Below, one piece after another: positions 13,191 to 41,510 of a DNA stretch of 63,583 nucleotides. The translations under genes and the position numbers were made by a program. The notes beneath the pieces were generated by a model. The model was given only the letters and a program-made list of their open reading frames with translations. It ran no database searches and was not told where the DNA came from. Source of the stretch: a virus; IMG/VR virus record IMGVR_UViG_3300036760_000302, positions 1 through 63,583 of that record; one strand, 5' to 3'. Every line of letters begins with the position of its first letter. Positions within the stretch are counted from its first letter, which is position 1.

Positions 13191-13308
13191 CCATATCATC
13201 AGCCTCAACGCTTCCTCTTTCCGTGCCCGCATCAGGCGCAGACGGTAATTCCGTCACATATTCCCTTTTGCCTTTCAACTCTTATTTATTTACAGCCTTT
13301 TTAAATCT

Positions 13309-13381: not shown

Positions 13382-13392
13382 CCAGTGTATTT

Positions 13393-13465
13393 GCCCGCAT
13401 AGTTTAATAGGACAGAACCTCTCATTCCTAACGAGAAAATCTCAGTTCGATTCTGGGTGTGGGTG
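13393..13465 (+). tRNA. tRNA-Arg(CCT)
   Basis: Acceptor GCCCGCA/TGTGGGT with wobble pairs, anticodon loop TTCCTAA. Confidence 0.87.
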
Positions 13466-13470
13466 CAAAT

Positions 13471-13543
13471 GGGTTCGTAGTTTAACAGGATAGAATATAT
13501 CACTACGGATGATATGATGGGGATTCGACTTCCCCCGAACCCA
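13471..13543 (+). tRNA. tRNA-Arg(ACG)
   Basis: Acceptor GGGTTCG/CGAACCC, anticodon stem TATCA/TGATA with loop CTACGGA. A34 would need host TadA to make inosine. Confidence 0.92.
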
Positions 13544-13547
13544 CAAC

Positions 13548-13620
13548 GCCTTTGTAGTTTAATTGGATAGAATATCAGATTTCGGCTCTGATGGTGGAGA
13601 TTCGAGTTCTCCCGAAGGCA
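13548..13620 (+). tRNA. tRNA-Arg(TCG)
   Basis: Acceptor GCCTTTG/CGAAGGC, anticodon stem TCAGA/TCTGA with loop TTTCGGC. Confidence 0.92.
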
Positions 13621-13627
13621 CAAAAAA

Positions 13628-13659
13628 AAATCCCGAAACAAATTAATGCTTCGGGATTT
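13628..13659. terminator. bidirectional terminator between tRNA-Arg and lipoprotein gene
   Basis: AAATCCCGAA / TTCGGGATTT, 10-bp stem flanked by A- and T-rich tracts, placed between convergent units. Confidence 0.75.
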
Positions 13660-13675
13660 ATAATTATTATTGTTT

Positions 13676-14431
13676 TTATTTCAGTATTTGAAAACTTCCT
13701 TTATAAGAAACACGAATAATACCTCCACCGCTACCGATAGCATTACGCTGGACGGTGCAAATAGGATACTTTTGTTTGTCTTTATCATTTTTTCCGCACG
13801 GAGGATTTACGCTTGACGTGCAATCGTCACATCCGAATGGGAATACACCTATTTGCCCGCTATTATTACGGATACCTTTGTTCCAGATAGAATCTACCTT
13901 CGGGTACATAGAACTCGCATTCCAATCTTCTCCTCCTAAAAATTTACCGGAGATTATACAGTTAGCTCCATCTACGCAAGATATTTCAACTGTCTCTTGT
14001 GGATTTGGATACGGAGCATTGGATATATTCACGATAAACTCAAAGATGTTTATGCCGAATGGGTATCGAGGGATAGCGCAAGTTAGAGCGACTGTATCGA
14101 AAGAAAATTCACCATTGTATCCCATGCTGTCTGGCGCATAGTCAATGGTGGAGTCATGTGGAGCGAGAGTGAAGTATCCTTTGAGTGGAGCGACTGAATC
14201 AGTAATGAACGGAACTTGACCTATGTTTTGCAGGCAACCATTTGTTGCACCGAGAGATAACCATACGACTACCGCCTTGTCGGTTTCGTTTACAACTCTT
14301 ATTCTGGTAGTGGTATCAACGGCTGGCTCGGACTGCTCGTTAATTACGACAGTTTCTTTTACATTAATAGTGTTGTCGCATCCGAAGAGTGCGATGCAGA
14401 GTGCGAATAATAATAGGATTCTGTTTTTCAT
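13676..14431 (-). CDS. lipoprotein, 251 aa
   Basis: MKNRILLLFALCIALFGC is a lipoprotein signal peptide with lipobox LFGC (Cys18). The mature part is predicted beta-rich, with Cys-rich loops (CDDCTSSVNPPCG) and a Val/Thr-rich N-terminal strand. It is the only minus-strand gene in the tRNA region and sits next to a minus-strand tRNA-like sequence. Probably a host-surface protein expressed by the phage (superinfection exclusion or lysis role possible), but this is a guess. Confidence 0.7.
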   Translation of the reverse strand: MKNRILLLFALCIALFGCDNTINVKETVVINEQSEPAVDTTTRIRVVNETDKAVVVWLSLGATNGCLQNIGQVPFITDSVAPLKGYFTLAPHDSTIDYAPDSMGYNGEFSFDTVALTCAIPRYPFGINIFEFIVNISNAPYPNPQETVEISCVDGANCIISGKFLGGEDWNASSMYPKVDSIWNKGIRNNSGQIGVFPFGCDDCTSSVNPPCGKNDKDKQKYPICTVQRNAIGSGGGIIRVSYKGSFQILK

Positions 14432-14468
14432 TTTGATTGGTTTGTTTTATTTGGGTTTATGGGGTTAG

Positions 14469-14538
14469 TAGTCACGATGGGGGTTGAACCCACTAAGACA
14501 GGGTTAGAATCCCATCCCTCCTCCACCGGAGCATGACT
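14469..14538 (-). tRNA. tRNA-like sequence, anticodon TCT (Arg?), minus strand
   Basis: On the minus strand AGTCATG/CGTGACT forms a 7-bp acceptor, GTGGG-TTCAACC-CCCAT a T-arm, and GGG-ATTCTAA-CCC a short anticodon arm. The D-arm collapses to a 3-nt-loop hairpin. It is the only tRNA-like element on this strand and is likely a decayed or atypical tRNA. Confidence 0.5.
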
Positions 14539-14605
14539 ATTTCCGGCAAAGATAATCAATATTTGGATTAACAAATTTTAACATTGCCGTATTAAAGAAT
14601 ATTCC

Positions 14606-14613
14606 TATATTTA
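14606..14613 (+). promoter_or_regulatory. -7 box before pth2-like gene
   Basis: TATATTTA, 24 nt before ATG 14637. Confidence 0.45.
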
Positions 14614-14636
14614 CTTAACGAACAACAAATACTACC

Positions 14637-15047
14637 ATGAAATAGATTTCCAACACCGACAAGTTAACGATAGTCACCAGACGTGACATCACCGCAGGAT
14701 ACCAAGCCTGCCAGTCCGCACACGCTATTGCGGAGTTCATTTTCAAATACCCATTCCTTTCTTATCTCTGGCACAAACGCTCAAATTATGTAGCGTTACT
14801 TTCCGTTCAGGGAGAACCAGCACTCATGTACCTTATAAGTAAGCTCGAAGCTGAAAATATAAAGCACGTTGCATTTAAAGAGCCGGACATCGGCAATCAG
14901 ATTACAGCCGTTTGCATCGAACCATCGGATAAGGCGCGAGCTATTTGTGCCGGAATGCCGTTGGCATTAAAAGAATTTCGCTCCGAGAATAAAATCAACA
15001 AGACGACCTATAAATCATTAACCTCAGAATACCAACTCATTACATGA
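14637..15047 (+). CDS. peptidyl-tRNA hydrolase Pth2-like, with amber codon at position 3
   Basis: From ATG 14637 the frame reads Met-Lys-TAG and then stays open for ~133 codons. The protein (KLTIVTRRDITAGYQACQSAHAIAEF..., FKEPDIGNQITAVCIEP, ALKEF) follows the archaeal/eukaryal-type Pth2 fold, which hydrolyses peptidyl-tRNA to recycle tRNA. Either translation starts at ATT 14646, the TAG is read through, or the ATG-AAA-TAG is a separate mini-ORF. The same ATGAAATAGATT string recurs at the gene's 3' end (15045). The job fits the surrounding tRNA and tmRNA genes. Confidence 0.65.
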
Positions 15048-15056
15048 AATAGATTA
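15045..15056 (+). repeat. second copy of ATGAAATAGATT
   Basis: 12 nt identical to 14637-14648, overlapping the Pth2 stop codon (TGA within ATGAAA). It again forms a Met-Lys-stop mini-ORF. Confidence 0.7.
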
Positions 15057-15145
15057 TAGGAAATATCAGAGAACCGCCTTAAAGTTCATGGGCGGAATAG
15101 AAATTTAATGAATTAGCAGTAATAATATTTTAAACTTTAAAAACA

Positions 15146-15577
15146 ATGAACACAATGAAAAATGAAAATCGCGCAGAGCTTCTCGAAGCGAACAGCGCAA
15201 ATGTTGAAGTAACATTCAATAAAATCCGAGAGTATGCAAACGCCAACGGATACATCATCATGAACGCCTTGAAAGTTCCAACGAATTTGATAGGCTTAAA
15301 CAAATCTCTTCACTTCGACAGCAAGAAGAAGAAAAAGGTTCTCAGGAATTACATCAATCGCCTTAATAAGCGTATGAGTCATTCCGGTGCGAACTGCTTT
15401 CTTCATTTTCTTTTTAAGACCATCTACAAAATGGATACTGCTCCAAGTGTAGAGTTTTCTGAAAAAGAAATAAAGATTCGTTCTGCTCGTAAGGCTTGGG
15501 TGAAAGCTCGTACAGAGGCAGAGAAACTCCGAGTCCTGTACCGGACGGAAAAGGGTGATTTTTATAAGAAGAAATAA
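15146..15577 (+). CDS. hypothetical protein, 143 aa
   Basis: A highly basic, helical protein (FDSKKKKKVLRNYINRLNKRM, ARKAWVKARTEAEKLRVLYRTEKGDF). No signal peptide. Its composition and setting between the Pth2-like gene and stable RNAs would suit an RNA-binding protein, but no family is recognised. Confidence 0.6.
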   Translation: MNTMKNENRAELLEANSANVEVTFNKIREYANANGYIIMNALKVPTNLIGLNKSLHFDSKKKKKVLRNYINRLNKRMSHSGANCFLHFLFKTIYKMDTAPSVEFSEKEIKIRSARKAWVKARTEAEKLRVLYRTEKGDFYKKK

Positions 15578-15580
15578 TCC

Positions 15581-15588
15581 TATCTTTA
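15581..15588 (+). promoter_or_regulatory. -7 box of small RNA
   Basis: TATCTTTA, near-consensus, just before the terminator-ended segment 15593-15673. Confidence 0.45.
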
Positions 15589-15592
15589 CAGT

Positions 15593-15673
15593 CTCATCTC
15601 CCAGTCCGAAGTACAAGGACGTTAGTGGAGAAGGAGCTCGAAAGACGCTAACCCATGATGGTTGGCGTTTTTT
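15593..15673 (+). ncRNA. ~80-nt small RNA with own promoter and terminator
   Basis: The segment contains GTCC-GAAGTACAA-GGAC, an alternative pairing GTTAG/CTAAC, and a terminator (15646-15673). It has no ORF. Because GTTAG (15621) competes for CTAAC of the terminator stem, it could also be a regulatory leader of the following RNA. Confidence 0.45.
15646..15673 (+). terminator. terminator
   Basis: CGCTAACC / GGTTGGCG, 8 bp with one G-T, loop CATGAT, then TTTTTT. Confidence 0.75.
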
Positions 15674-15689
15674 GGTTTAAGGAAATTAC

Positions 15690-15697
15690 TATCTTTG
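15690..15697 (+). promoter_or_regulatory. promoter of tmRNA transcript
   Basis: TATCTTTG exact consensus; TTG at 15672 lies 15 nt before it. Start expected near 15704. Confidence 0.6.
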
Positions 15698-16147
15698 CAT
15701 CAGGATTTCATTTTAAGTTCTTTGCTTATTGAGTTGTATTGACAATTTGTTTGGACGAGGGTTCGTAGCCCTCCGCCTCCACCAAATTTTAGTTAGGTAA
15801 CGCTATCGGTGTATGGGGCATCTCAAGGAACACATCTAACGTCAGGTGATGATACCGTAATTTGGCGGTTGTAACTTCTTGGACTGTCTTTGCGGGAAGC
15901 TAAACATACTTCCTGATAGTTCTCAACTGACAAGATAAAAAGATGTTTCGGTAACGAAATGTTCAACACTATCCATTGATGGTGCTTGTAGGCGGGAATA
16001 ACTGACTAATATTTTATTTTTACCTCCATCAACCATGCGTTGATGAATTACGGGAGCGTTCAGTTTTACTCTGGGCGCTTCTTGCTTTTGGGGGCGAATG
16101 TTTTGACAGCGAAGATGTCGGTATGATTTTCCGGTCAATAGACTGGA

Positions 16148-16201
16148 GCGAAATCTCAACGTCTAAATGACGAAAAAATAGAGTACCGTCTGGTCGCTTA
16201 G
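16148..16201 (+). other. putative tmRNA tag reading frame
   Basis: Seventeen codons plus TAG ending NDEKIEYRLVA. The NDE core and the hydrophobic C-terminal LVA resemble known SsrA tags (NDENYALAA/LVA type). The resume codon is uncertain; a later in-frame start would shorten the tag. Confidence 0.5.
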
Positions 16202-16223
16202 AGCGATGCAGGCAAACAGTTAA

Positions 16224-16256
16224 AAACCTCTCAGCGAAAGCTCAGGGGTTTTTCTG
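16224..16256 (+). terminator. terminator of tmRNA transcript
   Basis: AACCTC...GGGGTT with inner AGC-GAAA-GCT hairpin, then TTTTTCTGTTTTT. Confidence 0.75.
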
Positions 16257-16266
16257 TTTTTATAAC

Positions 16267-16274
16267 TATCTTTA
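16267..16274 (+). promoter_or_regulatory. -7 box before lipoprotein gene
   Basis: TATCTTTA only 4 nt before ATG 16279, so the mRNA would be nearly leaderless if this box is used. Confidence 0.35.
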
Positions 16275-16278
16275 CAAA

Positions 16279-17103
16279 ATGAAAAAATATTTCATAGTAA
16301 CGATATTGCTAATTCTGATTATAGTTTCATGCGGACTGTTCAGGAGTAAGTCATCCCATTACGGAGAAGGCTCTGGATACGGCTCTGGCGGAAATTCGCA
16401 TACGGATTCTACTACCGTTAACTTTGATTCTTTATTAGGCAATGATGATATTTTCGAGAGCTTAGAGCCAGAACCTCATAAAGTAGTAATAACCTCTGGC
16501 GAGGGTTGGTATCCAAAACCTCCGAATCCTAATTTGAAAATAGTTAAGATTGAAAATACGCGGGTCATAAATAAATCCGTTGATATGTCCGATGGAAGGG
16601 TCGTGTATAAAATTCCTGAGCGAATGAAGATTCGCGAGACCAGCAAAGTCCTGCTTAGAATCTCCAAGTCTAAAGCAACGGTGAGCGTGTATGATAATCT
16701 GGACGGCACAGTTCGGACATCAGAAATTCCGGTGACGCAGACGATGGAAGTAAATCTTATTGACCCATCCCCAGCCGACAATAAATCATTTGAGATAGTG
16801 CCGGACAATAACGCGGTGCAGATAGTTGATGACGGGGAGACCTACACTGAATGGTCATGGAATGTCACTCCGGTTCGGGCTGGGAGCTCCAGCTTGAAGA
16901 TTGTAGTATCGGTAATCCGCGATGGGAATAAAAAAGACGTAGTGTATGAGGACTCGGTAGTGATTGAAAGAGACCTCCAGAATCAAATATCCTTCTTCTG
17001 GGGCAAATACTGGCAGTGGCTCATAGGAACATTCCTCCTGCCGTTTTTCTTGTGGCTGTATAAGCGAAAAAAGGATAAAAAAGAAGAAGAGAGAAATAAT
17101 TGA
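16279..17103 (+). CDS. lipoprotein with C-terminal membrane anchor, 274 aa
   Basis: MKKYFIVTILLILIIVSC is a lipoprotein signal (lipobox IVSC, Cys18), followed by a Gly/Ser linker, a beta-rich domain (about 80-230, with alternating hydrophobic strands) and a C-terminal transmembrane helix (WQWLIGTFLLPFFLWLY) with a very basic tail. Two membrane attachments suggest an envelope-spanning protein, for example exclusion or lysis control. No family recognised. Confidence 0.65.
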   Translation: MKKYFIVTILLILIIVSCGLFRSKSSHYGEGSGYGSGGNSHTDSTTVNFDSLLGNDDIFESLEPEPHKVVITSGEGWYPKPPNPNLKIVKIENTRVINKSVDMSDGRVVYKIPERMKIRETSKVLLRISKSKATVSVYDNLDGTVRTSEIPVTQTMEVNLIDPSPADNKSFEIVPDNNAVQIVDDGETYTEWSWNVTPVRAGSSSLKIVVSVIRDGNKKDVVYEDSVVIERDLQNQISFFWGKYWQWLIGTFLLPFFLWLYKRKKDKKEEERNN

Positions 17104-17112
17104 AAATAATTT

Positions 17113-17142
17113 GCTCGCGTATTAAATTAATTCCTATATTTG
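17113..17142 (+). promoter_or_regulatory. promoter of leader RNA 2
   Basis: TTG near 17111 and TATATTTG at 17135-17142 with ~21 nt between. Confidence 0.6.
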
Positions 17143-17179
17143 CCTCGTGAGGCGCAAATCTCACTATGAAAAACAGAAA

Positions 17180-17272
17180 ATGAAAAATTTATCACTATAT
17201 AGTCTATCGTTGCTCCAACAGCATCCGCAGGGATACTCAGGGCTTCATTGCTATATGGTGATTGAAAAATAA
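17180..17272 (+). CDS. 30-aa leader ORF of RNA 2
   Basis: MKNLSLYSLSLLQQHPQGY... ends 22 nt before the terminator. It contains the alternative pairing partner of the terminator stem. Probably a regulatory leader peptide. Confidence 0.35.
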   Translation: MKNLSLYSLSLLQQHPQGYSGLHCYMVIEK

Positions 17273-17293
17273 AACTTCCAACACCAAGCAGAG

Positions 17294-17327
17294 AACCCTG
17301 AGCAAGAAATTGTTTGGGGTTTTTTGT
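17294..17327 (+). terminator. terminator of leader RNA 2
   Basis: AACCC...GGGGTT stem, then TTTTTTGTTTTT. Confidence 0.7.
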
Positions 17328-17349
17328 TTTTATGTGGTCGGTTGTAATT

Positions 17350-17423
17350 CGGGGTGTAGCGCAGTCCGGTAGCGCATCTGTTTTGGGAACAGAGGGTCGT
17401 AGGTTCAAATCCTGCCACTCCGA
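17350..17423 (+). tRNA. tRNA-Pro(TGG)
   Basis: Acceptor CGGGGTG/CACTCCG, anticodon stem TCTGT/ACAGA with loop TTTGGGA. Confidence 0.94.
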
Positions 17424-17430
17424 CAAATAT

Positions 17431-17505
17431 GGTGTTGTTAGTTCAGTCGGTTAGAACGCTTGATTGTGGTTCAAGAGGTCGCCAGTTCAAATCTGGTACA
17501 ACACC
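17431..17505 (+). tRNA. tRNA-His(GTG)
   Basis: GGTGTTGT/ACAACACC gives the 8-bp acceptor with G-1 opposite C73 that identifies histidine tRNAs; loop TTGTGGT. Confidence 0.95.
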
Positions 17506-17525
17506 CAGCTAAAATAAATGACAAA

Positions 17526-17723
17526 ATGAAAATAGATATAAGTTATATCAGCACTAAGTATTACGACAGGACAAACATTGTTCAATGGATGTTCATGTTT
17601 AAAAGATACACGGCTGTAAGGGGATTTATCATGAGGGTATTTGGAATTTATTTTAATGTGAGAGAAAATAATGCGACAGAAAAATTGATAAAATTATTTA
17701 TAGAATCACGGAAGTGTGGGTGA
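17526..17723 (+). CDS. hypothetical protein, 65 aa, overlapping tRNA-Ser
   Basis: Start chosen at ATG 17526 after tRNA-His (the open frame runs back through it). Basic, hydrophobic core (WMFMFKRYTAVRGFIMRVFGIYF). The last 14 nt lie in tRNA-Ser(GCT). No family recognised. Confidence 0.45.
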   Translation: MKIDISYISTKYYDRTNIVQWMFMFKRYTAVRGFIMRVFGIYFNVRENNATEKLIKLFIESRKCG

Positions 17724-17800
17724 GTGGCTGAAACCACTCGTTTGCTAAACGAGCAATCGGCTGAATAGTCGGTTCGAGAGTTCAAATCTCTCCGCTTCCG
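17710..17800 (+). tRNA. tRNA-Ser(GCT)
   Basis: Class II; acceptor GGAAGTG/CGCTTCC, loop TTGCTAA, long variable arm. Confidence 0.95.
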
Positions 17801-17814
17801 CAAATAAAAAAAAG

Positions 17815-18045
17815 ATGAACATAGTTCTTAAAATAAAAGTAGAAGGTTACACCGCTATAATGGTGGAGGATAAAGAGGAAGGTTTGTTTACGATGTCCTG
17901 CTTGGAAAAAGGTGGAGCAATCATAACCGGAAATACGAAGGAGGAATGTCTGGAGAAATTCAAGAAGGCGATGGGGCTGGCGGTCGCGGTAGCAAAGCTG
18001 GCTGAGTTTGGAAGAAGTAGAACATTTAACTACAAAAGAAAATGA
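17815..18045 (+). CDS. HicB-like protein, 76 aa
   Basis: The pattern TMSCLEKGGAIITGNTKEECLEKFKKAMGLA resembles the HicB/UPF0150 fold (G..t.G.T.eEa...f). It overlaps the next gene by 4 nt (ATGA), so the two are coupled. No HicA toxin nearby; a regulatory or RNA-related use is possible. Confidence 0.5.
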   Translation: MNIVLKIKVEGYTAIMVEDKEEGLFTMSCLEKGGAIITGNTKEECLEKFKKAMGLAVAVAKLAEFGRSRTFNYKRK

Positions 18046-18245
18046 ACACGGAAATTGAGGACATGATAATTGATAAATGGGCTGAGGATGTAATCAGCTC
18101 GGACTCGGAGCGAGTTATTGAATACAAGAATGGTAATGAAGGATTACTCGGATACTTTGTCGGAATGACGATGAAAAAATCGAGAGGTCAGTTGGATGTG
18201 AGTAAATTAAATAAGGCGATAAAAGAAAAACTCAATAAAATATAA
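18042..18245 (+). CDS. stand-alone GatB/YqeY tail-like domain, 67 aa
   Basis: ERVIEYKNGNEGLLGYFVGMTMKKSRGQLDVSKLNKAIKEKL matches the C-terminal helical (QqY) domain of GatB/YqeY proteins (V.dyk.Gk..a.g.lvGqvMk.tkGka....v...lk.kl). In GatB this domain contacts tRNA. Here it is a separate protein within a tRNA array, coupled to a HicB-like gene, so a tRNA-binding role is plausible. Confidence 0.7.
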   Translation: MNTEIEDMIIDKWAEDVISSDSERVIEYKNGNEGLLGYFVGMTMKKSRGQLDVSKLNKAIKEKLNKI

Positions 18246-18254
18246 AAACTGAAA

Positions 18255-18365
18255 ATGGAAGCACCAGAAAAAATAGACGAGGACTCGTTCTCCGGAATAA
18301 CACATACGGAGGCGTGGCAGAGTCAGCTTTATCGCACCAGTCTTGAAAACTGGCAATCACTTTAA
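18255..18365 (+). CDS. 36-codon ORF running into tRNA-Ser(TGA)
   Basis: MEAPEKIDEDSFSGITHTEA... continues through more than half of tRNA-Ser and stops in its variable arm. Low certainty, but it fits the recurring ORF/tRNA overlap. Confidence 0.25.
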   Translation: MEAPEKIDEDSFSGITHTEAWQSQLYRTSLENWQSL

Positions 18366-18402
18366 GCTAAGTGGTTCGGGGGTTGAAATCCCTCCGCCTC
18401 CG
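18308..18402 (+). tRNA. tRNA-Ser(TGA)
   Basis: Class II; acceptor GGAGGCG/CGCCTCC, anticodon stem CCAGT/ACTGG with loop CTTGAAA. Confidence 0.95.
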
Positions 18403-18462
18403 CAAATAAATAAAAACAGGAAGTAAATAAATAAAACAAAATGAAAGACTATTATTATACAT

Positions 18463-18496
18463 AGCGGGGATTGATTGGCAAGTCCACCTTCTCCGC
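18463..18496 (+). ncRNA. mini stem-loop (GCGGGGA/TCTCCGC)
   Basis: A 7-bp acceptor-like stem closing a 20-nt loop, 8 nt before tRNA-Tyr. No T-run. Confidence 0.35.
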
Positions 18497-18504
18497 AACG
18501 CAAT

Positions 18505-18588
18505 GGGAATGCGCCAGAGTTGGAGAGCTGGGTTTGTCTGTAAAACAAATGGCTTCGGTCTAAGTGAGTTCGATTCTCACAATTCCCA
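18505..18588 (+). tRNA. tRNA-Tyr(GTA)
   Basis: Class II with variable arm; anticodon stem TTTGT/ACAAA with loop CTGTAAA; acceptor GGGAAT/ATTCCC plus one mismatch. Confidence 0.93.
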
Positions 18589-18606
18589 CAGATGAAAATA
18601 AAATAT

Positions 18607-18690
18607 GCGAGCGTGGCGGAATCGGCATACGCACTGGTCTAAGAAGCCAGCGTCCGGAAGGAATTAAGAGTTCAACTCTCTTCGCTCGCA
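18607..18690 (+). tRNA. tRNA-Leu(AAG)
   Basis: Class II; acceptor GCGAGCG/CGCTCGC, loop CTAAGAA. Confidence 0.92.
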
Positions 18691-18694
18691 CAAA

Positions 18695-18778
18695 CCGCAA
18701 GTGGTGGAATCGGCAGACACATACGCCTCAGAAGCGTATGCTCGGAAGGGCGTAAGAGTTCAAGTCTCTTCTTGCGGA
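18695..18778 (+). tRNA. tRNA-Leu(CAG)
   Basis: Class II; acceptor CCGCAAG/CTTGCGG, anticodon stem TACGC/GCGTA with loop CTCAGAA. Confidence 0.94.
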
Positions 18779-18792
18779 CGAAAAATATAAAT

Positions 18793-18876
18793 GCGAGTAT
18801 GGCGGAACTGGCAGACGCGATGGACTCAAAACCCATTGGAGTGAAATCCGTAAGAGTTCGATTCTCTTTATTCGCA
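18793..18876 (+). tRNA. tRNA-Leu(CAA)
   Basis: Class II; acceptor GCGAGTA/TATTCGC, loop CTCAAAA. Confidence 0.92.
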
Positions 18877-18892
18877 CGATAAAAAAACTAAA

Positions 18893-18973
18893 ATGAAAAC
18901 AACTGAACGATTATGTGCGAGGGAAATATCCTCGCATGGCGAAATTGGTAAACGCGCTATCCTTAAAAGGTAG
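18893..18973 (+). CDS. 26-codon ORF ending in tRNA-Leu(TAA)
   Basis: MKTTERLCAREISSHGEI... starts between tRNAs and stops at a TAG in the anticodon stem of the next tRNA. Low certainty. Confidence 0.2.
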   Translation: MKTTERLCAREISSHGEIGKRAILKR

Positions 18974-19015
18974 TGGGCAGTAATGCCCGTGTCGGTTCGA
19001 CTCCGATTGCGAGGA
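18930..19015 (+). tRNA. tRNA-Leu(TAA)
   Basis: Class II; acceptor CCTCGCA/TGCGAGG, anticodon stem CTATC/GGTAG with loop CTTAAAA. Confidence 0.94.
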
Positions 19016-19093
19016 CAGTACAAAGTAATACGATGTAATACAAAATAATACAATGAACAATTTAAACCAGCAACAGCAAGAATAAACAACGAA

Positions 19094-19151
19094 GGGGAGA
19101 ACCATCGTAAGGAGGGGTCTTGCCCTTCCGGTGATGAATATATTCTCCTCT
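19094..19151 (+). ncRNA. nested hairpin before tRNA-Gln
   Basis: GGGGAGAA pairs with TTCTCCTC, which is also the tRNA-Gln acceptor strand; inside are CCATCG/GGTGATG and GGAGGG/CCTTCC. If it folds, it would compete with the tRNA 5' end, so it could be a processing switch. Confidence 0.35.
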
Positions 19152-19214
19152 CGTCTAACGGTAGGACATCTGATTTTGGCTCAGAGAATTGCAGTTCAAA
19201 TCTGTGGGGGAGAA
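19144..19214 (+). tRNA. tRNA-Gln(TTG) copy 1
   Basis: Acceptor TCTCCTC/GGGGAGA, anticodon stem TCTGA/TCAGA with loop TTTTGGC. Confidence 0.92.
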
Positions 19215-19229
19215 CAATAGAAAAATAAT

Positions 19230-19237
19230 TATCTTTG
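19230..19237 (+). promoter_or_regulatory. -7 box between the tRNA-Gln genes
   Basis: TATCTTTG exact consensus, 15 nt before tRNA-Gln copy 2. Confidence 0.5.
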
Positions 19238-19251
19238 CGGATATTTCTTAT

Positions 19252-19324
19252 TGACCTATGGTGTAATTGGCAACACGACTGATTTTGGTTCAGTAGAGTC
19301 TAAGTTCGAGCCTTAGTGGGTCAA
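19252..19324 (+). tRNA. tRNA-Gln(TTG) copy 2
   Basis: Acceptor TGACCTA/TGGGTCA, anticodon stem ACTGA/TCAGT with loop TTTTGGT; clearly different from copy 1 outside the anticodon. Confidence 0.93.
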
Positions 19325-19362
19325 CAAGCTGGATGCTGTTAATAAGTTTTGTAAGATTGTAC

Positions 19363-30558: not shown

Positions 30559-31320
30559 TTATTCAAGGACAGTAGCTTTATTGCTTATCAGGGTGTTGAA
30601 TCCGTTCTTAATCGAATCGTATTGCTTAATATACTTTGACTCGATACCGAATATTACCGAATCTTCTGTCTTGGCTGGTAATATCTCCAGCACCTCAAAT
30701 GTCCAATCACTCAGCTTACTGTTGTTTCTCAGGTATATCCCAAACGGACTACTGCTATGGGTTAAGTGATTCCACCACCGGAAGAATGGCGCATTCCTTG
30801 TCTTTCCGATGTAGCACTTGCTGGTTGCCTTTTCCGTTATCTTATAGATGTAGTTTGGAGAATCTTTACTTACATGATACTCGTCATCTGGATACTCTAC
30901 GTCTTTGTAGTATTCTTTCTTGTGCTCATTCAGGCAATAATCCTCTTCACCGCAGAACACTTTTCCGCCAAATAGTTTTTCATATTTTCTTGGTCTATGT
31001 AAATATGTGTTTTCATATTTTTGCCCGCAATGACAACACTTCCAGCTTGTATCCTTAACGACCTGTTCTTTTTCCCATTCATATAACGGGAAAATCACTA
31101 CATAGAAAAACTGAGCGGTGTCTTTTGTTTCCTTTTGATATACTTTATTGTCAGGGAAGAATTGCGGATACTTTTGTAATAGAAATTGCTTCACCTCGTC
31201 TTTGTCCTTTGCCATAATTAATCTTTCCGCCACTATATTTTCAGAGCCAAATTCAACTTGGTTGATTGACTTCACTACTCTTATAAATGCCTTGAAGTAT
31301 TTTTTATCTTGCTTCTTCAT
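30559..31320 (-). CDS. zinc/GIY-YIG endonuclease, 253 aa
   Basis: The N-terminal domain is unknown. CCHCGQKYENT...FCGEEDYCLNEH is a zinc site (about 92-132), and the C-terminal ~95 residues (YIYKITEKATSKCYIGKTRNAPFFRWWNHL, given in part) form a GIY-YIG nuclease with the catalytic Arg region and a late Glu (FGIESKYI). It sits 2 nt after dnaB, so it may be a free-standing homing enzyme acting near replication genes. Confidence 0.75.
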   Translation of the reverse strand: MKKQDKKYFKAFIRVVKSINQVEFGSENIVAERLIMAKDKDEVKQFLLQKYPQFFPDNKVYQKETKDTAQFFYVVIFPLYEWEKEQVVKDTSWKCCHCGQKYENTYLHRPRKYEKLFGGKVFCGEEDYCLNEHKKEYYKDVEYPDDEYHVSKDSPNYIYKITEKATSKCYIGKTRNAPFFRWWNHLTHSSSPFGIYLRNNSKLSDWTFEVLEILPAKTEDSVIFGIESKYIKQYDSIKNGFNTLISNKATVLE

Positions 31321-31322: not shown

Positions 31323-33260
31323 TTAGAAATCGTCCTCTATGCTATTGGTTTTTGGTTCGCCTGTATTTTGGTGTGATGATGATGGTTGTGGACTGCTTTG
31401 GTCTGGTTGATTGTTAAATAATGAGTACGAGGGCTCTACGAATTTAGATAAGTGAGGAATGAACATTAGGTTTTCTATTCCAATTCTTCCGTTACGATGC
31501 TTTGCGATTACTATTTCTGCCAAGCCCTGAGTAGAGTTTCCGTTCTCGTCCTCCAGTATGCCATAATACTCCGGTCTGTGGATAAATGCAACAAGGTCGG
31601 CATCTTGCTCTATCTGACCGGATTCGCGCAGGTCTGATAGTTGGGGTCTTTTAGCAGTTCCACCTCTTTGCTCAAGCATACGGCTTAACTGTGACAGTGC
31701 TATGATTGGAATATTTAGTTCTTTAGCAATCGCCTTGAGCGACCTTGAAATCAATCCAACCTCTTGCTCTCTATTCCCTTTTCCTTCTCCGCCAACCATT
31801 AGTTGCAGGTAGTCAATGACAATCATTGAAATATCATGCTGAGACTTCAATCTCTTCGCTTTTGCCTTGAACTCAAACAGCGATAAGGATGGGGTGTCAT
31901 CAATAAATAGCGGAGAGTGCGCGAGTTCAGTTATTTTTTCATTTAAAAACTGAAATTCTTCTGTACTGACCTGACCCTGCCTTAATTTCTCGCTGGAGAA
32001 CTCAGTCTCAGATGCAATTAATCTCATTACTAATTGCAGGGATGTCATTTCGAGACTAAATATTGCGACTGGTTTTTTAAATCTTACCGATGCGTTTCTG
32101 GCAAGAGCCATCATAAGGGCGGTATTATGAACCACCGTACAATCTTCAAGTAAGAATAATCTATTTCCGTCTAAGGTAAATCCATAATATATATCAACTA
32201 TATCTTGCTCAACACTAATTGGTGTTAATGCCTGCACTTCAATATCGCGTATATCAACCCTGTATCCCTTGTAATTATTTTTCCATTCGGATGATTTTTT
32301 CAAATACTCCCTAACTTCAATATTCGCTACATCTCCAGAATTGTTTTTTAAGGACAATATGTGGCTTTCATTAACCCTATAATCTATCCCGTGAAGTTGC
32401 TTCACATTATACATCATTTCCCTGCCAGATGTCGTAGATAGAACATTTCGAGGAGTAGAGTCATTGCCCATTAGTACGTCTCCTGTTTTTATATCCTCTA
32501 CATTTTTAATACAGCCATCGTACATCATTATTCTTGTTCCCTTCCCAAAACATTTTCCCATTGCCGGACGTGCCCCAAGAATAATCAAGTCTGAGTTCTG
32601 CCAGCCTCCGGTAATTGCATCGAGCCTTGTGAATCCAGATGGGATACCTTGAAATGTCTGGTCTCTGGAATCTTCTATTTGCTTTATGGCTTTTCCGAGA
32701 AGGGACTGAATGGTCTCGTAGTTCTTTCGGATGTTATCCTGACTTACGGAGAATAACTCATTCTCAGATTTTTCCATCAACTCAAATACGTCTGTTGAGT
32801 CCTCGTAAGAATTTTGAAGGATGTTAGTGCAAACTCTTATGAGTTCTCTTTGTAAAAATTTTTCTATTATTATTCGTGCATGAACTTCTACGTTTGCTGA
32901 TGATGCGATTCTATTTGTAAGCTGGGTGACGTAAAATGCTCCTCCTGCATTTTCGAGATTACCTTCTTTTTTTAATCTTTGAGTGACAGTTAAAATGTCA
33001 ATAGCGTCCGAATCGTTGAATAGGGATTGAATAGCGGTGTATATTAATATATGCGCTTCTTTGTAGAAGGTAGCTGGCTTTAAGATGTCAATTACATTGG
33101 CAAGTGCGCCTTTGTCCAGCATGATAGCGCCCAGCACAGCTTCTTCTAAGTCAACTGCGGATGGTGGTAGCTTGCCGAGTCCTATTAATTGCTGTGGAGT
33201 GATAGAGATTTTATTTCTCTTCCTTTTATCCCTAATATCTTTATTGTTGCCAGATTCCAT
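31323..33260 (-). CDS. dnaB: replicative DNA helicase DnaB with mini-intein
   Basis: 645 aa including an intein. N-domain (PPSAVDLEEAVLGAIMLDKG) and RecA-type C-domain (SGFTRLDAITGGW, Walker A GARPAMGK-T split by the intein, VIDYLQLM Walker B, SQLSRMLEQRGG, DLRESGQIEQDADLV) are complete. After splicing it would be ~502 aa, near the usual size. It unwinds the replication fork. An HNH endonuclease gene lies 6 nt upstream and a GIY-YIG gene 2 nt downstream. Confidence 0.96.
   Translation of the reverse strand: MESGNNKDIRDKRKRNKISITPQQLIGLGKLPPSAVDLEEAVLGAIMLDKGALANVIDILKPATFYKEAHILIYTAIQSLFNDSDAIDILTVTQRLKKEGNLENAGGAFYVTQLTNRIASSANVEVHARIIIEKFLQRELIRVCTNILQNSYEDSTDVFELMEKSENELFSVSQDNIRKNYETIQSLLGKAIKQIEDSRDQTFQGIPSGFTRLDAITGGWQNSDLIILGARPAMGKCFGKGTRIMMYDGCIKNVEDIKTGDVLMGNDSTPRNVLSTTSGREMMYNVKQLHGIDYRVNESHILSLKNNSGDVANIEVREYLKKSSEWKNNYKGYRVDIRDIEVQALTPISVEQDIVDIYYGFTLDGNRLFLLEDCTVVHNTALMMALARNASVRFKKPVAIFSLEMTSLQLVMRLIASETEFSSEKLRQGQVSTEEFQFLNEKITELAHSPLFIDDTPSLSLFEFKAKAKRLKSQHDISMIVIDYLQLMVGGEGKGNREQEVGLISRSLKAIAKELNIPIIALSQLSRMLEQRGGTAKRPQLSDLRESGQIEQDADLVAFIHRPEYYGILEDENGNSTQGLAEIVIAKHRNGRIGIENLMFIPHLSKFVEPSYSLFNNQPDQSSPQPSSSHQNTGEPKTNSIEDDF
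32124..32552 (-). mobile_element. mini-intein in the DnaB Walker A motif, 143 aa
   Basis: Inserted after GARPAMGK. It starts CFGKGTRIMMYDG (Cys1, block A), has a block-B-like DYRVNESHILSL, block F EQDIVDIYYGFTLDGN and ends VVHN before Thr+1. No homing endonuclease domain is present. The P-loop is a classic intein site in helicases. Splicing is needed to make active DnaB. Confidence 0.93.
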
Positions 33261-33266: not shown

Positions 33267-33800
33267 TTATTTTATATGTCCCCATCTTTCTCCGCATCTC
33301 ACTCTATCAATATGTTTTATTGAAACGCCAAACATTTCTGATAATTCTTTTCTCGACATAATGTATCTCGAATTTCTAATGACACTTACATCTTCTTTTG
33401 TCAATTTATGAGCTCCATTATTTTGTCCAAAATTACGAGCAACTAAATTATTTTTTGAAGCGTGTTCTGAATTTTCTTTATGGGTCGTCCATTCTAAATT
33501 CTTCCAATGTGGATTATATTTATCCCCATCCTTGTGATTTACTTCTGGTTTATTATGCGGATTTGGAATAAAATGCTTTGCAACTAAAACATGAATTGAT
33601 GTCTTTGTTGGCTTTTTATTTTTGTAAAGATTTACGAATAAATATCTATCCTTTATTGGTATCAGTGTTTTTTTTGGAAATACGACTTTTCCCCACCTTC
33701 CTTTGTCTATAATTTTCTCTAAGCTCTTAGCTCTGCCAAATCTGCTAATCCGATACAGTCCTTCGTATCCAATTATGTCCTTCCAAATCCCCCTTTTCAT
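33267..33800 (-). CDS. NUMOD4-HNH homing endonuclease
   Basis: 177 aa. WKDIIGYEGLYRISRFGRAKSL is the NUMOD4 DNA-binding motif; VNHKDGDKYNPHWKNLEWTT is the HNH_3 core; a C-terminal HTH-like part (LSEMFGVSIKHIDRVRCGERW) completes it. It stands directly upstream of intein-bearing dnaB and may supply the cutting activity that the mini-intein lacks. Confidence 0.9.
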   Translation of the reverse strand: MKRGIWKDIIGYEGLYRISRFGRAKSLEKIIDKGRWGKVVFPKKTLIPIKDRYLFVNLYKNKKPTKTSIHVLVAKHFIPNPHNKPEVNHKDGDKYNPHWKNLEWTTHKENSEHASKNNLVARNFGQNNGAHKLTKEDVSVIRNSRYIMSRKELSEMFGVSIKHIDRVRCGERWGHIK

Positions 33801-35882: not shown

Positions 35883-36064
35883 TGCATCAAGTATCTCCAG
35901 ACGATAAAGACAATAATCCAAAGGACTACGTTGATTATCACGAACTGAGCAAATACCGTTTCACTTTCTTTTTTAAAATATTTATTTGATGCCATTTTTA
36001 ATACGACCCATAGTACGCTGGTAATCAAGGCTACGCTTATTATGAAGGATATAAAATAGTTCAT
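35852..36064 (-). CDS. small membrane protein, 70 aa
   Basis: Two hydrophobic helices (YFISFIISVALITSVLWVVL and FVIINVVLWIIVFIVW) with a short basic loop. Start overlaps the recT stop (ATGA). Its C-terminus is encoded by the inverted repeat. Confidence 0.55.
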   Translation of the reverse strand: MNYFISFIISVALITSVLWVVLKMASNKYFKKESETVFAQFVIINVVLWIIVFIVWRYLMQIILGNYILI

Positions 36065-37167
36065 CAGTCAATTTTTGGATTATTGAAAAATTCCATCATT
36101 CCACCTCTTTTTTTGCCCGCACCGAATTTACTGCTACTCATCATGATGCTTGAATTTTCATCATCAATCATAATTGCTCGTTGGATGTATTCCGGTAGCG
36201 TAGTTCCTTTTGGCAGGAATTTATAATGACTTCTGATTGCACACTTCTTGTACATATCTGTTTTCCATTCGGTATAGAAATAGTCGCTCTCGCCTCCGGT
36301 ACTCATTTGTTCTATTTTCGCGAGCTTCCATATCTCCATGAAGTGATAATGCTTTGTTCCGTCATTCAGTATGGCGACAGAATAAGCTCCGGCAATTTGG
36401 CGTGCATTATTTTCAGCTTCGGTCTTAGCAACTTTTGGCTTATGGGTAATTTTATTCTCGGCTGGAAGATACTCGAACTCATAGTCATCTTCATAAACTA
36501 TATGAGCGTCCATAACTTTTATACTACCGCTATCTGTCAAGGACTTGATTAATCCGCGATAGGTGAGCTCGAATACGCATTTGCCGTCTTTGGCTTTAAG
36601 GTATGCAAGTTTTAAAGCTGGATTAATTGTGCTCTTGGTTCTGCCTATGTCAATGATTGCGGAAACTATCGAGTCTTGATGACAATTTTTGAGAGTTGGA
36701 TTTTCGTGGAAGATGGAATAAACGTATGACATCTCGGTGTCAGCTTGACTCTCAGCCATTCCTTCGACTACCAGTATTTGCCTTGCCTTCTCTACTTGGT
36801 TCTGCCAGTGAGGTGTAGAGCCGGAAATGGTAGTGGATTCGTTAGGCTCTAATACAATAGGTGATGATGAGATTATTTTAATGGGCTTGTCGCTATTATT
36901 TTTTATGTCGAATCGTTGTCCTGCTGATGATGCGTGAGGTAATGCAACCGTAGTCTGAGTCTCGGATTCCTTTTTTAATTTCCAAATCATTGTGTTGATA
37001 GAACCCTCAGACCTATTAAGCTGGGACGATAGCCAATCTACTGGCTTATTTATATTGTGCTGGATGAAATCAATCTCATCCTGCTTCCACCGCTTGTTGT
37101 GAGATTTTCCTGTAAAACCTGTTAGATTTAGTTGAGAGGTATAAGGCATTATTTTTTTCTGTTTCAT
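36064..37167 (-). CDS. recT: RecT-family single-strand annealing protein (portion of fusion or internal start)
   Basis: ESQADTEMSYVYSIFHENPTLKNC, CVFELTYRGLIKSLTDSG and RQIAGAYSVAILNDGTKHYHFME are RecT core blocks. It anneals complementary ssDNA, working with the SSB and the RecB-like nuclease at 40320. ATG 37167 (MKQKKIMPYTSQ) would give a 367-aa protein with an extra N-terminal SANT-like domain not typical of RecT. Confidence 0.85.
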   Translation of the reverse strand: MKQKKIMPYTSQLNLTGFTGKSHNKRWKQDEIDFIQHNINKPVDWLSSQLNRSEGSINTMIWKLKKESETQTTVALPHASSAGQRFDIKNNSDKPIKIISSSPIVLEPNESTTISGSTPHWQNQVEKARQILVVEGMAESQADTEMSYVYSIFHENPTLKNCHQDSIVSAIIDIGRTKSTINPALKLAYLKAKDGKCVFELTYRGLIKSLTDSGSIKVMDAHIVYEDDYEFEYLPAENKITHKPKVAKTEAENNARQIAGAYSVAILNDGTKHYHFMEIWKLAKIEQMSTGGESDYFYTEWKTDMYKKCAIRSHYKFLPKGTTLPEYIQRAIMIDDENSSIMMSSSKFGAGKKRGGMMEFFNNPKID

Positions 37168-38571
37168 TTTTTTTAGTTGTAAAAAAAATCCACCAAAGTG
37201 ATACATTTTTTCGACACTTTTTATAGAATAAACCTTTTTTGAATCTTCAATTTTAACTCGTGTGCCTTTGTCTTGCATCCCGCCAACTGAAAATATTTTT
37301 CCGTTAATCCAAATCAAATCTTTTGGCTGAATAGCATATCGTTGCTTTCGGATTGAAGGCGAAAATCCTTTTCTGTTTAATTGAATCGCCCTGTTATTTC
37401 TATGCTTTTGTTGAATTGTAATTGACCCGTATCGCTCTTGTGTTGCTCCGCCAGCAATAACAAACGCATCAGTGGCGTGGGATTTTTCTAATCCCAGTTT
37501 TTGTCTTTCAACGAAAGTTTTGTATCCAAAGGTGATATTTACATCTGGAATATCTTGTTTGAATTTATGTTGGATGATGGACATAAATGTATTTGCTTTA
37601 TACTCTTTTGGAGTAAATAATTTTAATCCATTATTATGCAATTTCTTGTGACACTTCTTATGAATTATCGCCAAGTTTTCTGAACGGTCAGAGCCCTGTT
37701 CGTGACGCTCTTTGCAGTGATGAATATGCGATGGATTTCCTTTTGTAAATTCTTTGTGGCACAACTGGCATAAACCATGTTCTCGCGCCATCAGATATGC
37801 TCTCATATTTTGGTAGCCATACAAATCTCCTTGCTGATAACCAATGCCATTAATGTCTGGATTTATAATTTTAGCGATGTCAAAATTGCCAGTTTCGATT
37901 GTGACTTTTGAAATTGGCAGAATTGATTTTGCATTCTTGATTAGCGTCAAATGAGCGTCATATCTCCTTTGAATTGATGGTGGAAGCCAACCTTCTTTTT
38001 GATTCCCTCGATTCAAAAATCTTGATTTTCGATACCATAATTTGTTTCTCTTTAACCTGCGATACATTCTTCTTTCGGTCAGCCTACTTGATGTTTTGCT
38101 GTCAAGCGTAATTGTTTGAGACAATACTTCTTTCGTTGAGGTAATGGCTGACATTCCAACATTGTTAAATCCGGAATCAACTCCAAGTCTGATTTCTTGC
38201 GCCTGATTCTCGCACTCAAAATTTAATTTAATAGTGAATGGATACAATTTAATAACCTTAGCGCGATTACCGTTAAGTAATTTTTTCGCTTTTGCTGGAG
38301 TGCATGGCATTAAAGTGCGTCCTTCAATACTAATTACATACACAATGGCTTTAAGCCTCTCTGTATGTTGAGATAAATCCACTTCGGGATTGTTAAAACA
38401 GGTTTTTGAGCCTGACACACTAAGAGTTTCCTCTTTGTTTAATGACAGACCACAGTTGCTACGGACTTGTGGAGCATCCGTAGGTGTGTTCTTTTTAGTT
38501 CTCTGTTTTAACTTCTGCTTCATTGTTTCCAATTTACGCTCCCTAATCAACCTGTTACCCTTAAACCTCAC
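36064..38571 (-). CDS. IscB RNA-guided nuclease fused in frame to RecT recombinase, 835 aa
   Basis: IscB part: PLMP-type domain (EGRTLMPCTPAKAKKLL), RuvC-I LGVDSG (Asp132), arginine-rich bridge (about 165-205), RuvC-II VTIETGNFD (Glu226), HNH with CQLC and IHHC...KKCHKKLH, RuvC-III SHATDAF (Asp368) and a C-terminal target-interaction domain (IWINGKIFSVGG). The frame then reads FFLQLKK-M469 into RecT: a SANT/Myb-like helix trio (about 493-535), a linker and the RecT core (595-800). The IscB start is probably GTG 38343, with omega-RNA before it. RecT could start alone at ATG 37167 or 37149. T8 and A8 tracts at the junction make a sequencing indel possible. Confidence 0.85.
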   Translation of the reverse strand: MRFKGNRLIRERKLETMKQKLKQRTKKNTPTDAPQVRSNCGLSLNKEETLSVSGSKTCFNNPEVDLSQHTERLKAIVYVISIEGRTLMPCTPAKAKKLLNGNRAKVIKLYPFTIKLNFECENQAQEIRLGVDSGFNNVGMSAITSTKEVLSQTITLDSKTSSRLTERRMYRRLKRNKLWYRKSRFLNRGNQKEGWLPPSIQRRYDAHLTLIKNAKSILPISKVTIETGNFDIAKIINPDINGIGYQQGDLYGYQNMRAYLMAREHGLCQLCHKEFTKGNPSHIHHCKERHEQGSDRSENLAIIHKKCHKKLHNNGLKLFTPKEYKANTFMSIIQHKFKQDIPDVNITFGYKTFVERQKLGLEKSHATDAFVIAGGATQERYGSITIQQKHRNNRAIQLNRKGFSPSIRKQRYAIQPKDLIWINGKIFSVGGMQDKGTRVKIEDSKKVYSIKSVEKMYHFGGFFLQLKKMKQKKIMPYTSQLNLTGFTGKSHNKRWKQDEIDFIQHNINKPVDWLSSQLNRSEGSINTMIWKLKKESETQTTVALPHASSAGQRFDIKNNSDKPIKIISSSPIVLEPNESTTISGSTPHWQNQVEKARQILVVEGMAESQADTEMSYVYSIFHENPTLKNCHQDSIVSAIIDIGRTKSTINPALKLAYLKAKDGKCVFELTYRGLIKSLTDSGSIKVMDAHIVYEDDYEFEYLPAENKITHKPKVAKTEAENNARQIAGAYSVAILNDGTKHYHFMEIWKLAKIEQMSTGGESDYFYTEWKTDMYKKCAIRSHYKFLPKGTTLPEYIQRAIMIDDENSSIMMSSSKFGAGKKRGGMMEFFNNPKID

Positions 38572-38760
38572 GGCTCAAGCCCTTTCTTTTGGATTGGGTG
38601 ATTGACTCCTTTGCTCCATTTTTAATCAAATCCTTTTTTTTAATCCGTATCTCAATAAAAGAGTAGGCAAGTAGCGACACCAATTCCTTCACACCGATGG
38701 CTGTCGGAAGGTGGAACGATGCCACTACCGCCTACAAGACGTTAGGAGTATCCTAAATAA
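38345..38760 (-). ncRNA. probable omega-RNA (HEARO-type) region upstream of iscB
   Basis: Read on the minus strand, the region before the IscB GTG holds a long imperfect stem around 38655-38745 (a GTAGGC...GCCTAC closing pair), a hairpin CTACGGA/TCCGTAG near 38470 and CAGG/CCTG near 38400. IscB systems encode their guide RNA directly upstream of the gene with the guide at its 5' end. The region overlaps the extended N-terminal frame, which is thus probably untranslated. Exact ends are unknown. Confidence 0.5.
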
Positions 38761-40319: not shown

Positions 40320-41510
40320 TTAATAATGTACGATTTGTAGTAATGGAATATCTGTAAAGCTCTTGCAGGTTTTATTGATTGGGCAGTCAGCGCATTCTTT
40401 TACATCTGGAATCGCTTTAAATCCCTCTTCGATGAACTTGTCAAGCATCTTGCTGGAGTTCCTCATTACGTTTTCGAGCTGAGGGAATCTATCTTCGTCA
40501 ATGACCACCTTAATGAATAAGCAGTCGTATTCGTTTGTGTTGGAGAAAACTGTAAAGTAGAATGGAATGTCTTTTCCGTAGAGCTTGCGCCAGAGCCACT
40601 TGTAGAACACTGGCTGAATCATTATCTTATCTTTCTCTGAAAGCGCATTTACGTCCCAGCCCATATCGTCAAAACGATTCCCTATAAGTCCGGTACTCTT
40701 GATGTCAATGATTGCTTCTTCTCCGTCCACTTGAGCCAGAATGTCGGCTACTCCTTTTTTATCTTGATACTTCAATTCGAGTCCGGTCTTGAGTATTTTT
40801 ATTCCGTGAGCTTTTACGGTTCGCTTAAAGCGCTCGGCTTGAATGACCATTCGGGCGTATGGAGCAGTGAGCTCGCCAAGAATAATTTTTTCTTCAATCT
40901 TATCTTTTGCCCGCTTGCCGTTTTTCAGTTTCTTCCCTTTTTTTATGATGACCTTCTCTATTTTACCCTTTTTGCGTTCCGGCTCAGGAATTTTTCCGTC
41001 TCTTGGAAGAGCTCCGGTGCATAGATACTCGAAGTAGTTTCCTAACTTCTGGACACCGCCCGAAGGGAATGGAATCTTTTTAATATACTGCGCTTCAAAT
41101 TGTAAGCCACACAACCTACCCTCAGCATACTCGTAAATCGCTTTTAAGAGGGACTGGCTAATATTGAGCTTAATGACTTGCTTGGAATCATCCTTGATTT
41201 TGTCGTCCGGCTTCTCTTTCGCCTTCTCCATTAATGTTAATTCAGATTTATCCGCCCATATATACTTTGAGTTCTCCTTTAATTGCTTTGAAATGAGCTC
41301 TGGGTCTTTTTCGTTCGGCAGTAAGTAGGCTTCTTTTGTAAAGCCATGATGATGTTGTATGACATATCTGCCATGAACTATCGCCCAGATATAAGTTCCT
41401 TGTACCGGAACAAATACTCTGCCTCCGTTGATATTCACTTTCGGATTCGGGGAAAAAGAAACTTTGTCGCCTCGCTTTAAAATTATTTTATTTGATTCCG
41501 ACTCACTCAT
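40320..41510 (-). CDS. RecB/Cas4-like PD-(D/E)XK nuclease, 396 aa
   Basis: KGVADILAQ (metal Asp) and EEAIIDIKSTG (D-x-K) form the nuclease core, about residues 254-273. The C-terminal DVKECADCPINKTCKSF Cys cluster may hold an Fe-S or zinc site as in Cas4/AddB. The N-terminal ~90 residues are a small beta domain. Proximity to RecT suggests a 5'-3' exonuclease partner, like RecE with RecT. Confidence 0.8.
   Translation of the reverse strand: MSESESNKIILKRGDKVSFSPNPKVNINGGRVFVPVQGTYIWAIVHGRYVIQHHHGFTKEAYLLPNEKDPELISKQLKENSKYIWADKSELTLMEKAKEKPDDKIKDDSKQVIKLNISQSLLKAIYEYAEGRLCGLQFEAQYIKKIPFPSGGVQKLGNYFEYLCTGALPRDGKIPEPERKKGKIEKVIIKKGKKLKNGKRAKDKIEEKIILGELTAPYARMVIQAERFKRTVKAHGIKILKTGLELKYQDKKGVADILAQVDGEEAIIDIKSTGLIGNRFDDMGWDVNALSEKDKIMIQPVFYKWLWRKLYGKDIPFYFTVFSNTNEYDCLFIKVVIDEDRFPQLENVMRNSSKMLDKFIEEGFKAIPDVKECADCPINKTCKSFTDIPLLQIVHY

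What the first reader, a model, noticed from the sequence alone, without database searches (positions are those of the whole stretch)
36064..38571. IscB RNA-guided nuclease fused in frame to a RecT recombinase
One uninterrupted 835-codon frame joins a catalytically complete IscB (RuvC D132, E226, D368; HNH HH and CxxC pairs) to a RecT annealing protein with a SANT-like domain between. A guided nickase or nuclease linked to a strand-annealing protein would be a natural cut-and-anneal machine. Alternatively IscB has simply inserted just before recT and reads through, with RecT starting at ATG 37167 or 37149. Homopolymers (T8 and A8) at the join mean a one-base error could create or destroy the fusion.
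Basis: partly seen in the sequence, partly recalled or inferred. Interest (0 to 1): 0.92.

Follow-up and report, generated by a model that had tools for sequence, protein, structure and literature searches.

The report
Phage IscB element abutting recT
A small RNA-guided DNA-cutting element (IscB with its guide RNA) has settled directly in front of a phage's recT recombination gene, and the two genes read as one protein only because of the exact length of two runs of identical bases, so the 'fusion' is more likely an accident of reading than a purpose-built machine.

Summary
The open frame is real: minus strand 38571 to 36064, 835 codons, no stop. Its first 75 codons, however, overlap the HEARO/omegaRNA gene (38606-38373), so the protein probably starts near GTG 38343 (759 aa at most). 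The IscB part is complete (invariant D56, E150, H208/H209, D292; NCBIfam guided_IscB 289 bits) and so is RecT (TIGR00616; model matches A118 RecT). IscB directly in front of another gene is the normal layout: 56 of 65 close relatives have an ORF starting within 100 nt of the IscB stop, 8 in an exact ATGA stop/start overlap. None of 155 related IscB frames runs beyond 451 codons and none lies near recT, so the fusion is unique to this record. It depends on a T8 and an A8 run. One T fewer gives GGFFYN*, the family's usual end; one A fewer gives a stop overlapping recT's ATG. The phage uses A-rich leaders with few Shine-Dalgarno motifs, and ATG 37167 is the best of 22 in-frame ATGs. Best reading: an IscB-omegaRNA homing-type element at recT's start, RecT made separately; the read-through reflects a one-base run-length difference (real change, slippage-dependent, or sequence error). 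A functional cut-and-anneal fusion is not excluded but unsupported.

The parts
38607..38622 (-). Putative guide (16 nt, AAAATGGAGCAAAGGA) directly 5' of the omegaRNA scaffold; contains a start-like ATG at 38619
   Evidence: Position by analogy with known IscB omegaRNAs (guide 5' of scaffold; established knowledge); sequence; ATG 38619 leader score 2.63. Not shown functionally.
38373..38606 (-). HEARO / omegaRNA scaffold
   Evidence: Rfam RF02033, 109.4 bits, full-length 1-211; fold z-score -3.59
37177..38343 (-). iscB, RNA-guided nuclease, residues 1-389 (probable start GTG 38343)
   Evidence: NCBIfam guided_IscB 288.9 bits; invariant catalytic residues; PDB IscB matches by sequence and fold
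37828..38343 (-). RRXRR (PLMP/RuvC) part of IscB
   Evidence: Pfam PF14239, 180.5 bits
37633..37770 (-). HNH domain of IscB
   Evidence: Pfam PF01844, 29.8 bits
37181..37188 (-). T8 run (coding strand) at the IscB C-terminus; one T fewer gives GGFFYN*
37167..37174 (-). A8 run ending in the A of recT's ATG; one A fewer gives LQLKK* with an ATGA overlap
36064..37167 (-). recT, RecT-family ssDNA annealing protein, 367 aa from ATG 37167
   Evidence: TIGR00616 60 bits, PHROG 148, fold match to A118 RecT 7ub2 E=5e-8; start leader
36955..37110 (-). Weak helix-turn-helix / SANT-like segment in the RecT N-terminal extension
   Evidence: PHROG 323 E=1.4e-4; low model confidence
36199..36720 (-). RecT core
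   Evidence: Pfam PF03837 62.5 bits; most of it at pLDDT 80-95

Best explanation
This is a phage-borne IscB-omegaRNA (HEARO) element, more like a homing element than a complete transposon, lodged directly at the 5' end of the phage's recT gene. Inferred mechanism: the omegaRNA carries a guide taken from the sequence just left of the element; IscB loaded with it cuts copies of the recT region that lack the element, and repair from the element-bearing copy spreads it. RecT is a separate, ordinary strand-annealing protein started at ATG 37167, whose A-rich leader is the 3' end of iscB. In this one record iscB has no stop before recT because of the length of one of two adjacent homopolymer runs, by a real one-base change or a consensus error. 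A fused product, if made, is most likely incidental. Shown: omegaRNA, IscB and RecT are present, apparently intact and adjacent, and the fusion is unique and run-length dependent. Inferred: guide use, cleavage, homing, separate RecT translation.
For: Full-length HEARO RNA in front of IscB. Complete IscB and RecT. 155 of 155 closed related IscB frames are at most 451 codons and none is near recT; 79 of 79 viral ones stop at their own C-terminus. In 22 of 35 aligned relatives the last residue falls at window IscB position 387-391, most often 389, exactly where the neighbouring frame GGFFYN* ends. 56 of 65 close relatives have a same-strand ORF starting within 100 nt of the IscB stop, 8 in an exact ATGA overlap. 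ATG 37167 has the best leader of 22 in-frame ATGs, above 97% of other ATGs. Other homing-type genes nearby: Hint domain in DnaB, NUMOD4-HNH, GIY-YIG.
Against: No element-free relative was found, so the insertion boundary and the original recT start are not demonstrated. The right end has no recognised transposon hairpin. The predicted IscB start GTG 38343 has a poor leader score. Guide use and cutting are not testable here. Homopolymers of 8-9 inside other open frames of this contig speak against a simple consensus error.
Confidence: 0.78

Rival explanations
1. The frame is a real and used IscB-RecT fusion: the guided nuclease makes the break and the tethered RecT anneals the ends to the element-bearing copy, improving homing.
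For: Frame open over both intact parts; catalytic residues and RecT core kept; functional logic is attractive.
Against: Unique among 155 closed related frames; family-typical stop in the next frame; strong own start for RecT; the join lies between two homopolymers.
Confidence: 0.07
2. Slippage-set dual expression: transcripts vary in the T8 and A8 runs, so the locus makes IscB alone, RecT alone and a minor fusion, and this ratio is used.
For: Bacterial IS elements use slippage on A9, and A8 in some organisms, to make ORF fusions (PMC1088944); here most other run lengths end IscB near the join (frames).
Against: No conserved run in relatives; runs of 8 are at or below the usual slippage length; the phage has 32 runs of 8 or more, so such runs are common.
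Confidence: 0.1
3. The fusion does not exist in the phage: the run length in the record is a consensus error.
For: One base in T8 or A8 decides; the family-typical C-terminus appears in the next frame; only one record exists.
Against: Other 8-9 base runs lie inside open frames of the same contig, including a T8 in the NUMOD4-HNH gene, without breaking them. This outcome is one of the variants allowed by the best explanation.
Confidence: 0.35
4. IscB carries a recoded copy of the recT start as rescue: the left flank ATG GAG CAA AGG would be the old start and ATG AAA CAG AAA the recoded one.
For: L115 shows such a duplication clearly (MILYLCGMHG / MIFYLCGMHG; p=0.0025); the old-start ATG 38619 has a good leader (2.63).
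Against: In the window the flank comparison is not significant (p=0.42).
Confidence: 0.12

Closest known systems
IscB / HEARO (OMEGA) RNA-guided nucleases, e.g. OgeuIscB (PDB 7utn, 8csz) and HEARO enzymes of PMC9755519
   Same: PLMP/RuvC-HNH nuclease with all catalytic residues and a HEARO/omegaRNA directly upstream
   Different: No stop before the downstream gene; shorter (about 389 aa) than OgeuIscB (496 aa); no TnpA or right-end hairpin seen here
Phage homing endonucleases (HNH, GIY-YIG) beside replication and recombination genes
   Same: Selfish nuclease inserted at a conserved recombination gene, leaving it intact; other such genes lie nearby
   Different: Target set by a guide RNA instead of protein-DNA contacts (inferred)
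RecT family ssDNA annealing proteins (E. coli Rac RecT, phage A118 RecT)
   Same: Core sequence and fold
   Different: About 115-residue N-terminal extension with a weak helix-turn-helix-like segment, absent from the relatives compared
IS elements that make ORF fusions by transcriptional slippage (PMC1088944)
   Same: A mobile-element gene joined to the next frame across a homopolymer
   Different: No conserved run in relatives; the downstream gene is a phage gene, not part of the element

Membership tests
IscB (OMEGA nuclease) | PLMP + RuvC (D, E, D) + HNH catalytic residues | tested here: met
   D56, E150, H208/H209, D292 invariant; guided_IscB 288.9 bits vs cut-off 175; Foldseek 8csz E=2.9e-22
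IscB (OMEGA nuclease) | omegaRNA (HEARO) adjacent upstream, same strand | tested here: met
   RF02033 at 38606-38373, 109.4 bits
IscB (OMEGA nuclease) | RNA-guided DNA cleavage next to a TAM | not testable with these tools
   Needs biochemistry
Homing element | Element-free allele with the guide target intact in a relative | tested here: inconclusive
   No close relative; one 16-nt match followed by ATGA upstream of an unrelated recT (L249), flanks not similar
IS200/IS605 transposon | TnpA or right-end hairpin | not tested
   No systematic search was made; several relatives show a hairpin-like sequence behind the IscB stop, while here iscB abuts recT directly
RecT family | RecT core sequence and fold | tested here: met
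   TIGR00616 60 bits vs cut-off 52.65; PF03837; 7ub2 E=5e-8
IscB-RecT fusion protein family | Same fusion in independent relatives | tested here: not met
   0 of 155 closed frames extended, 0 loci with recT

The most novel reading that the evidence does not exclude
A natural RNA-guided nuclease that is physically joined, in all or a slippage-set fraction of molecules, to a strand-annealing recombinase, so that cutting and annealing at the homing target are coupled.
Probability: 0.08. Interest if true: 0.85.

Novelty: new member of a known kind. Interest (0 to 1): 0.35.

Why it matters
If only the best explanation holds, it adds a phage IscB-omegaRNA element at a recombination gene and shows where this IscB group tends to sit: directly at the start of the next gene, sometimes in an exact ATGA stop/start overlap. 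It also warns against reading single-contig fusions across homopolymers as new machines. If the fusion were used, it would be a natural precedent for a guided nuclease joined to an annealing protein.

Tried and rejected
(1) Close relatives of recT, of iscB by single-protein query, and of the upstream nuclease: none in viral contigs; megablast of 15 kb against phages: none. (2) Recoded duplication of the recT start: not significant in the window (p=0.42), although L115 shows a clear case (p=0.0025). (3) The argument that recT lost its Shine-Dalgarno sequence and therefore needs the fusion: dropped, because this phage hardly uses Shine-Dalgarno motifs and has A-rich leaders. (4) L249 as the empty site: the 16-mer plus ATGA sits at the end of an exonuclease-like gene 0.8 kb before a recT, but the flanks are unlike and L249 is 62% GC; kept only as a lead. 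(5) A mixed IscB+RecT alignment for a model of the whole fusion was not used because its RecT rows showed only 13-18% identity and appeared to align to IscB. (6) RecT in the records of 30 close IscBs: none at E <= 0.001. (7) A short ORF left of the element (ending KNGAKE) as a truncated upstream gene: not supported beyond the 16-nt guide. (8) Papers naming an IscB-RecT fusion: none evident in the search.

Full report
What was checked. The coordinates carry an open frame only on the minus strand: 38571 (GTG) to 36064, 835 codons. Pfam places RRXRR at 77-248, HNH at 268-313 and RecT at 618-791. The window is a 63,583-base virus record.

Where the protein begins. Rfam's HEARO model matches 38606-38373 over its full length with 109.4 bits (gathering score 83; again in a scan of the whole window). 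The strand folds better than all of 200 shuffles (z = -3.59). The likely start is GTG 38343, giving at most 759 aa. NCBIfam's guided_IscB model matches from the first residue.

IscB. The part is complete: 288.9 bits to guided_IscB, PDB IscB hits by sequence, and an AF2 model of moderate confidence (mean pLDDT 73) whose best structural matches are IscB-omegaRNA complexes (8csz, E = 2.9e-22). D56, E150, H208, H209 and D292 are invariant in the alignments. Codon-position divergence from the closest relative (0.32/0.19/0.51 for L089) is what a protein under purifying selection gives.

RecT. The part matches TIGR00616 above its cut-off and PHROG 148, RecT-like ssDNA annealing protein. The AF2 model has pLDDT of about 80-95 over most of the core, and its one PDB match with E below 0.001 is RecT of phage A118 (7ub2, E = 5e-8). 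The first ~115 residues are low-confidence; a helix-turn-helix/SANT-like segment is only weakly supported (PHROG 323, E = 1.4e-4; no Pfam match).

Is the fusion found elsewhere? No. All 79 viral relatives of the IscB end at their own C-terminus. Adding 80 loci from bacterial and archaeal genomes, the 155 frames that reach a stop are at most 451 codons long, and none lies beside a recT by sequence or by profile. In the phage collection no record covers 80% of the fusion.

Why the window's frame runs on. The window reads GGT GGA TTT TTT TTA CAA CTA AAA AAA ATG AAA CAG. In an alignment with 35 relatives the last residue falls at window IscB position 387-391 in 22 cases, most often 389, with ends such as FGGLSWN*, FGSLTYNN*, FGTFSNN*. 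The neighbouring frame in the window reads GGFFYN*, which would end at exactly 389. So one T fewer in T8 gives a family-typical end. One A fewer in A8 gives LQLKK* with its TGA overlapping recT's ATG (ATGA). Changes of a single base in either run remove the fusion; changes that cancel, or of three bases, keep it. The ATGA overlap is itself a common arrangement: 8 of 65 close relatives have exactly this overlap with the next gene, and 56 of 65 have an ORF of 60 or more codons starting within 100 nt of the IscB stop. I cannot tell from sequence alone which run changed.

Which start does RecT use? The phage's minus-strand genes, 61 ATG starts, show A-rich, G-poor leaders and few Shine-Dalgarno motifs. 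ATG 37167 scores 3.39, above 97% of other ATGs, at the 41st percentile of the gene starts used to build the model, and best of the 22 in-frame ATGs; 37149 scores 1.89. Its leader is the 3' end of iscB. This supports independent translation of RecT and removes an early argument of mine that RecT would depend on the fusion.

Error, mutation or slippage? Reads were not available. Other runs of 8-9 lie inside open frames of this contig, including a T8 inside the NUMOD4-HNH gene, so I do not call it an error. Bacterial IS elements do use slippage on A9, and on A8 in some organisms, to make fusions (PMC1088944), so a minor fused product cannot be excluded.

How it most likely works. Shown: omegaRNA, IscB and RecT are present, apparently intact and adjacent; RecT has a good start of its own; the fusion is unique in the collections searched and run-length dependent. 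Inferred: the guide is the ~16 nt left of the omegaRNA; the ATGA at recT's start would fit an NTGA-type TAM such as that reported for the related IsrB (PMC9581776); IscB cuts element-free copies and spreads by repair, as a homing element would. The neighbourhood supports such a life: a Hint/intein domain in dnaB, a NUMOD4-HNH gene and a GIY-YIG gene lie within about 8 kb.

Search for the empty site. It failed: no close relative of recT or of the upstream nuclease gene is in the collections. The exact 16-nt guide occurs in 24 viral contigs. Only one, L249, is followed by ATGA, and it lies at the end of an exonuclease-like gene 0.8 kb before a recT. The protein sequence beyond the 16 nt is not similar (p = 0.85), so I keep it as a lead only.

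Verdict. Observation confirmed, with corrections of strand and start. The object is a new member of a known kind (phage IscB/HEARO element) in an unusual but probably accidental reading-frame relation to recT.

Noticed in passing
6512-19325 +: 33 tRNA genes covering all 20 amino acids (ARAGORN), an unusually full set for a virus record.
   Followed up: no
31323-33260 -: DnaB helicase gene holding a Hint/intein-like insertion (PF05203) at the Walker A motif (GK/T).
   Followed up: no
30559-31320 - and 33267-33800 -: A GIY-YIG gene and a NUMOD4-HNH gene flank the intein-bearing dnaB: a cluster of homing-type elements in the replication region.
   Followed up: partly
5439-6533 +: A further HNH/homing endonuclease-like gene (PHROG 559, PHROG 3339) next to the tRNA cluster.
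   Followed up: no
21472-63544 -: Genes have A-rich, G-poor leaders and few Shine-Dalgarno motifs, hinting at a host of the Bacteroidota type (host not tested).
   Followed up: partly
40320-41510 -: PD-(D/E)XK nuclease about 2 kb upstream of the IscB element, possibly the exonuclease partner of RecT; no relatives found.
   Followed up: partly
L115 3697-3728 and about 5160-5200: IscB element flanked by two versions of the same gene start (MILYLCGMHG before the omegaRNA, MIFYLCGMHGSGT after IscB), p=0.0025: a possible natural recoded rescue.
   Followed up: partly
L112 2529-2777 and 3711-3971: Two HEARO RNAs in a row, only the second directly in front of the IscB that was matched.
   Followed up: no
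L249, reverse strand near 10813-10828: Exact copy of the window's 16-nt guide followed by ATGA at the end of an exonuclease-like gene 0.8 kb before a recT, in an unrelated 62% GC virus; probably chance.
   Followed up: yes
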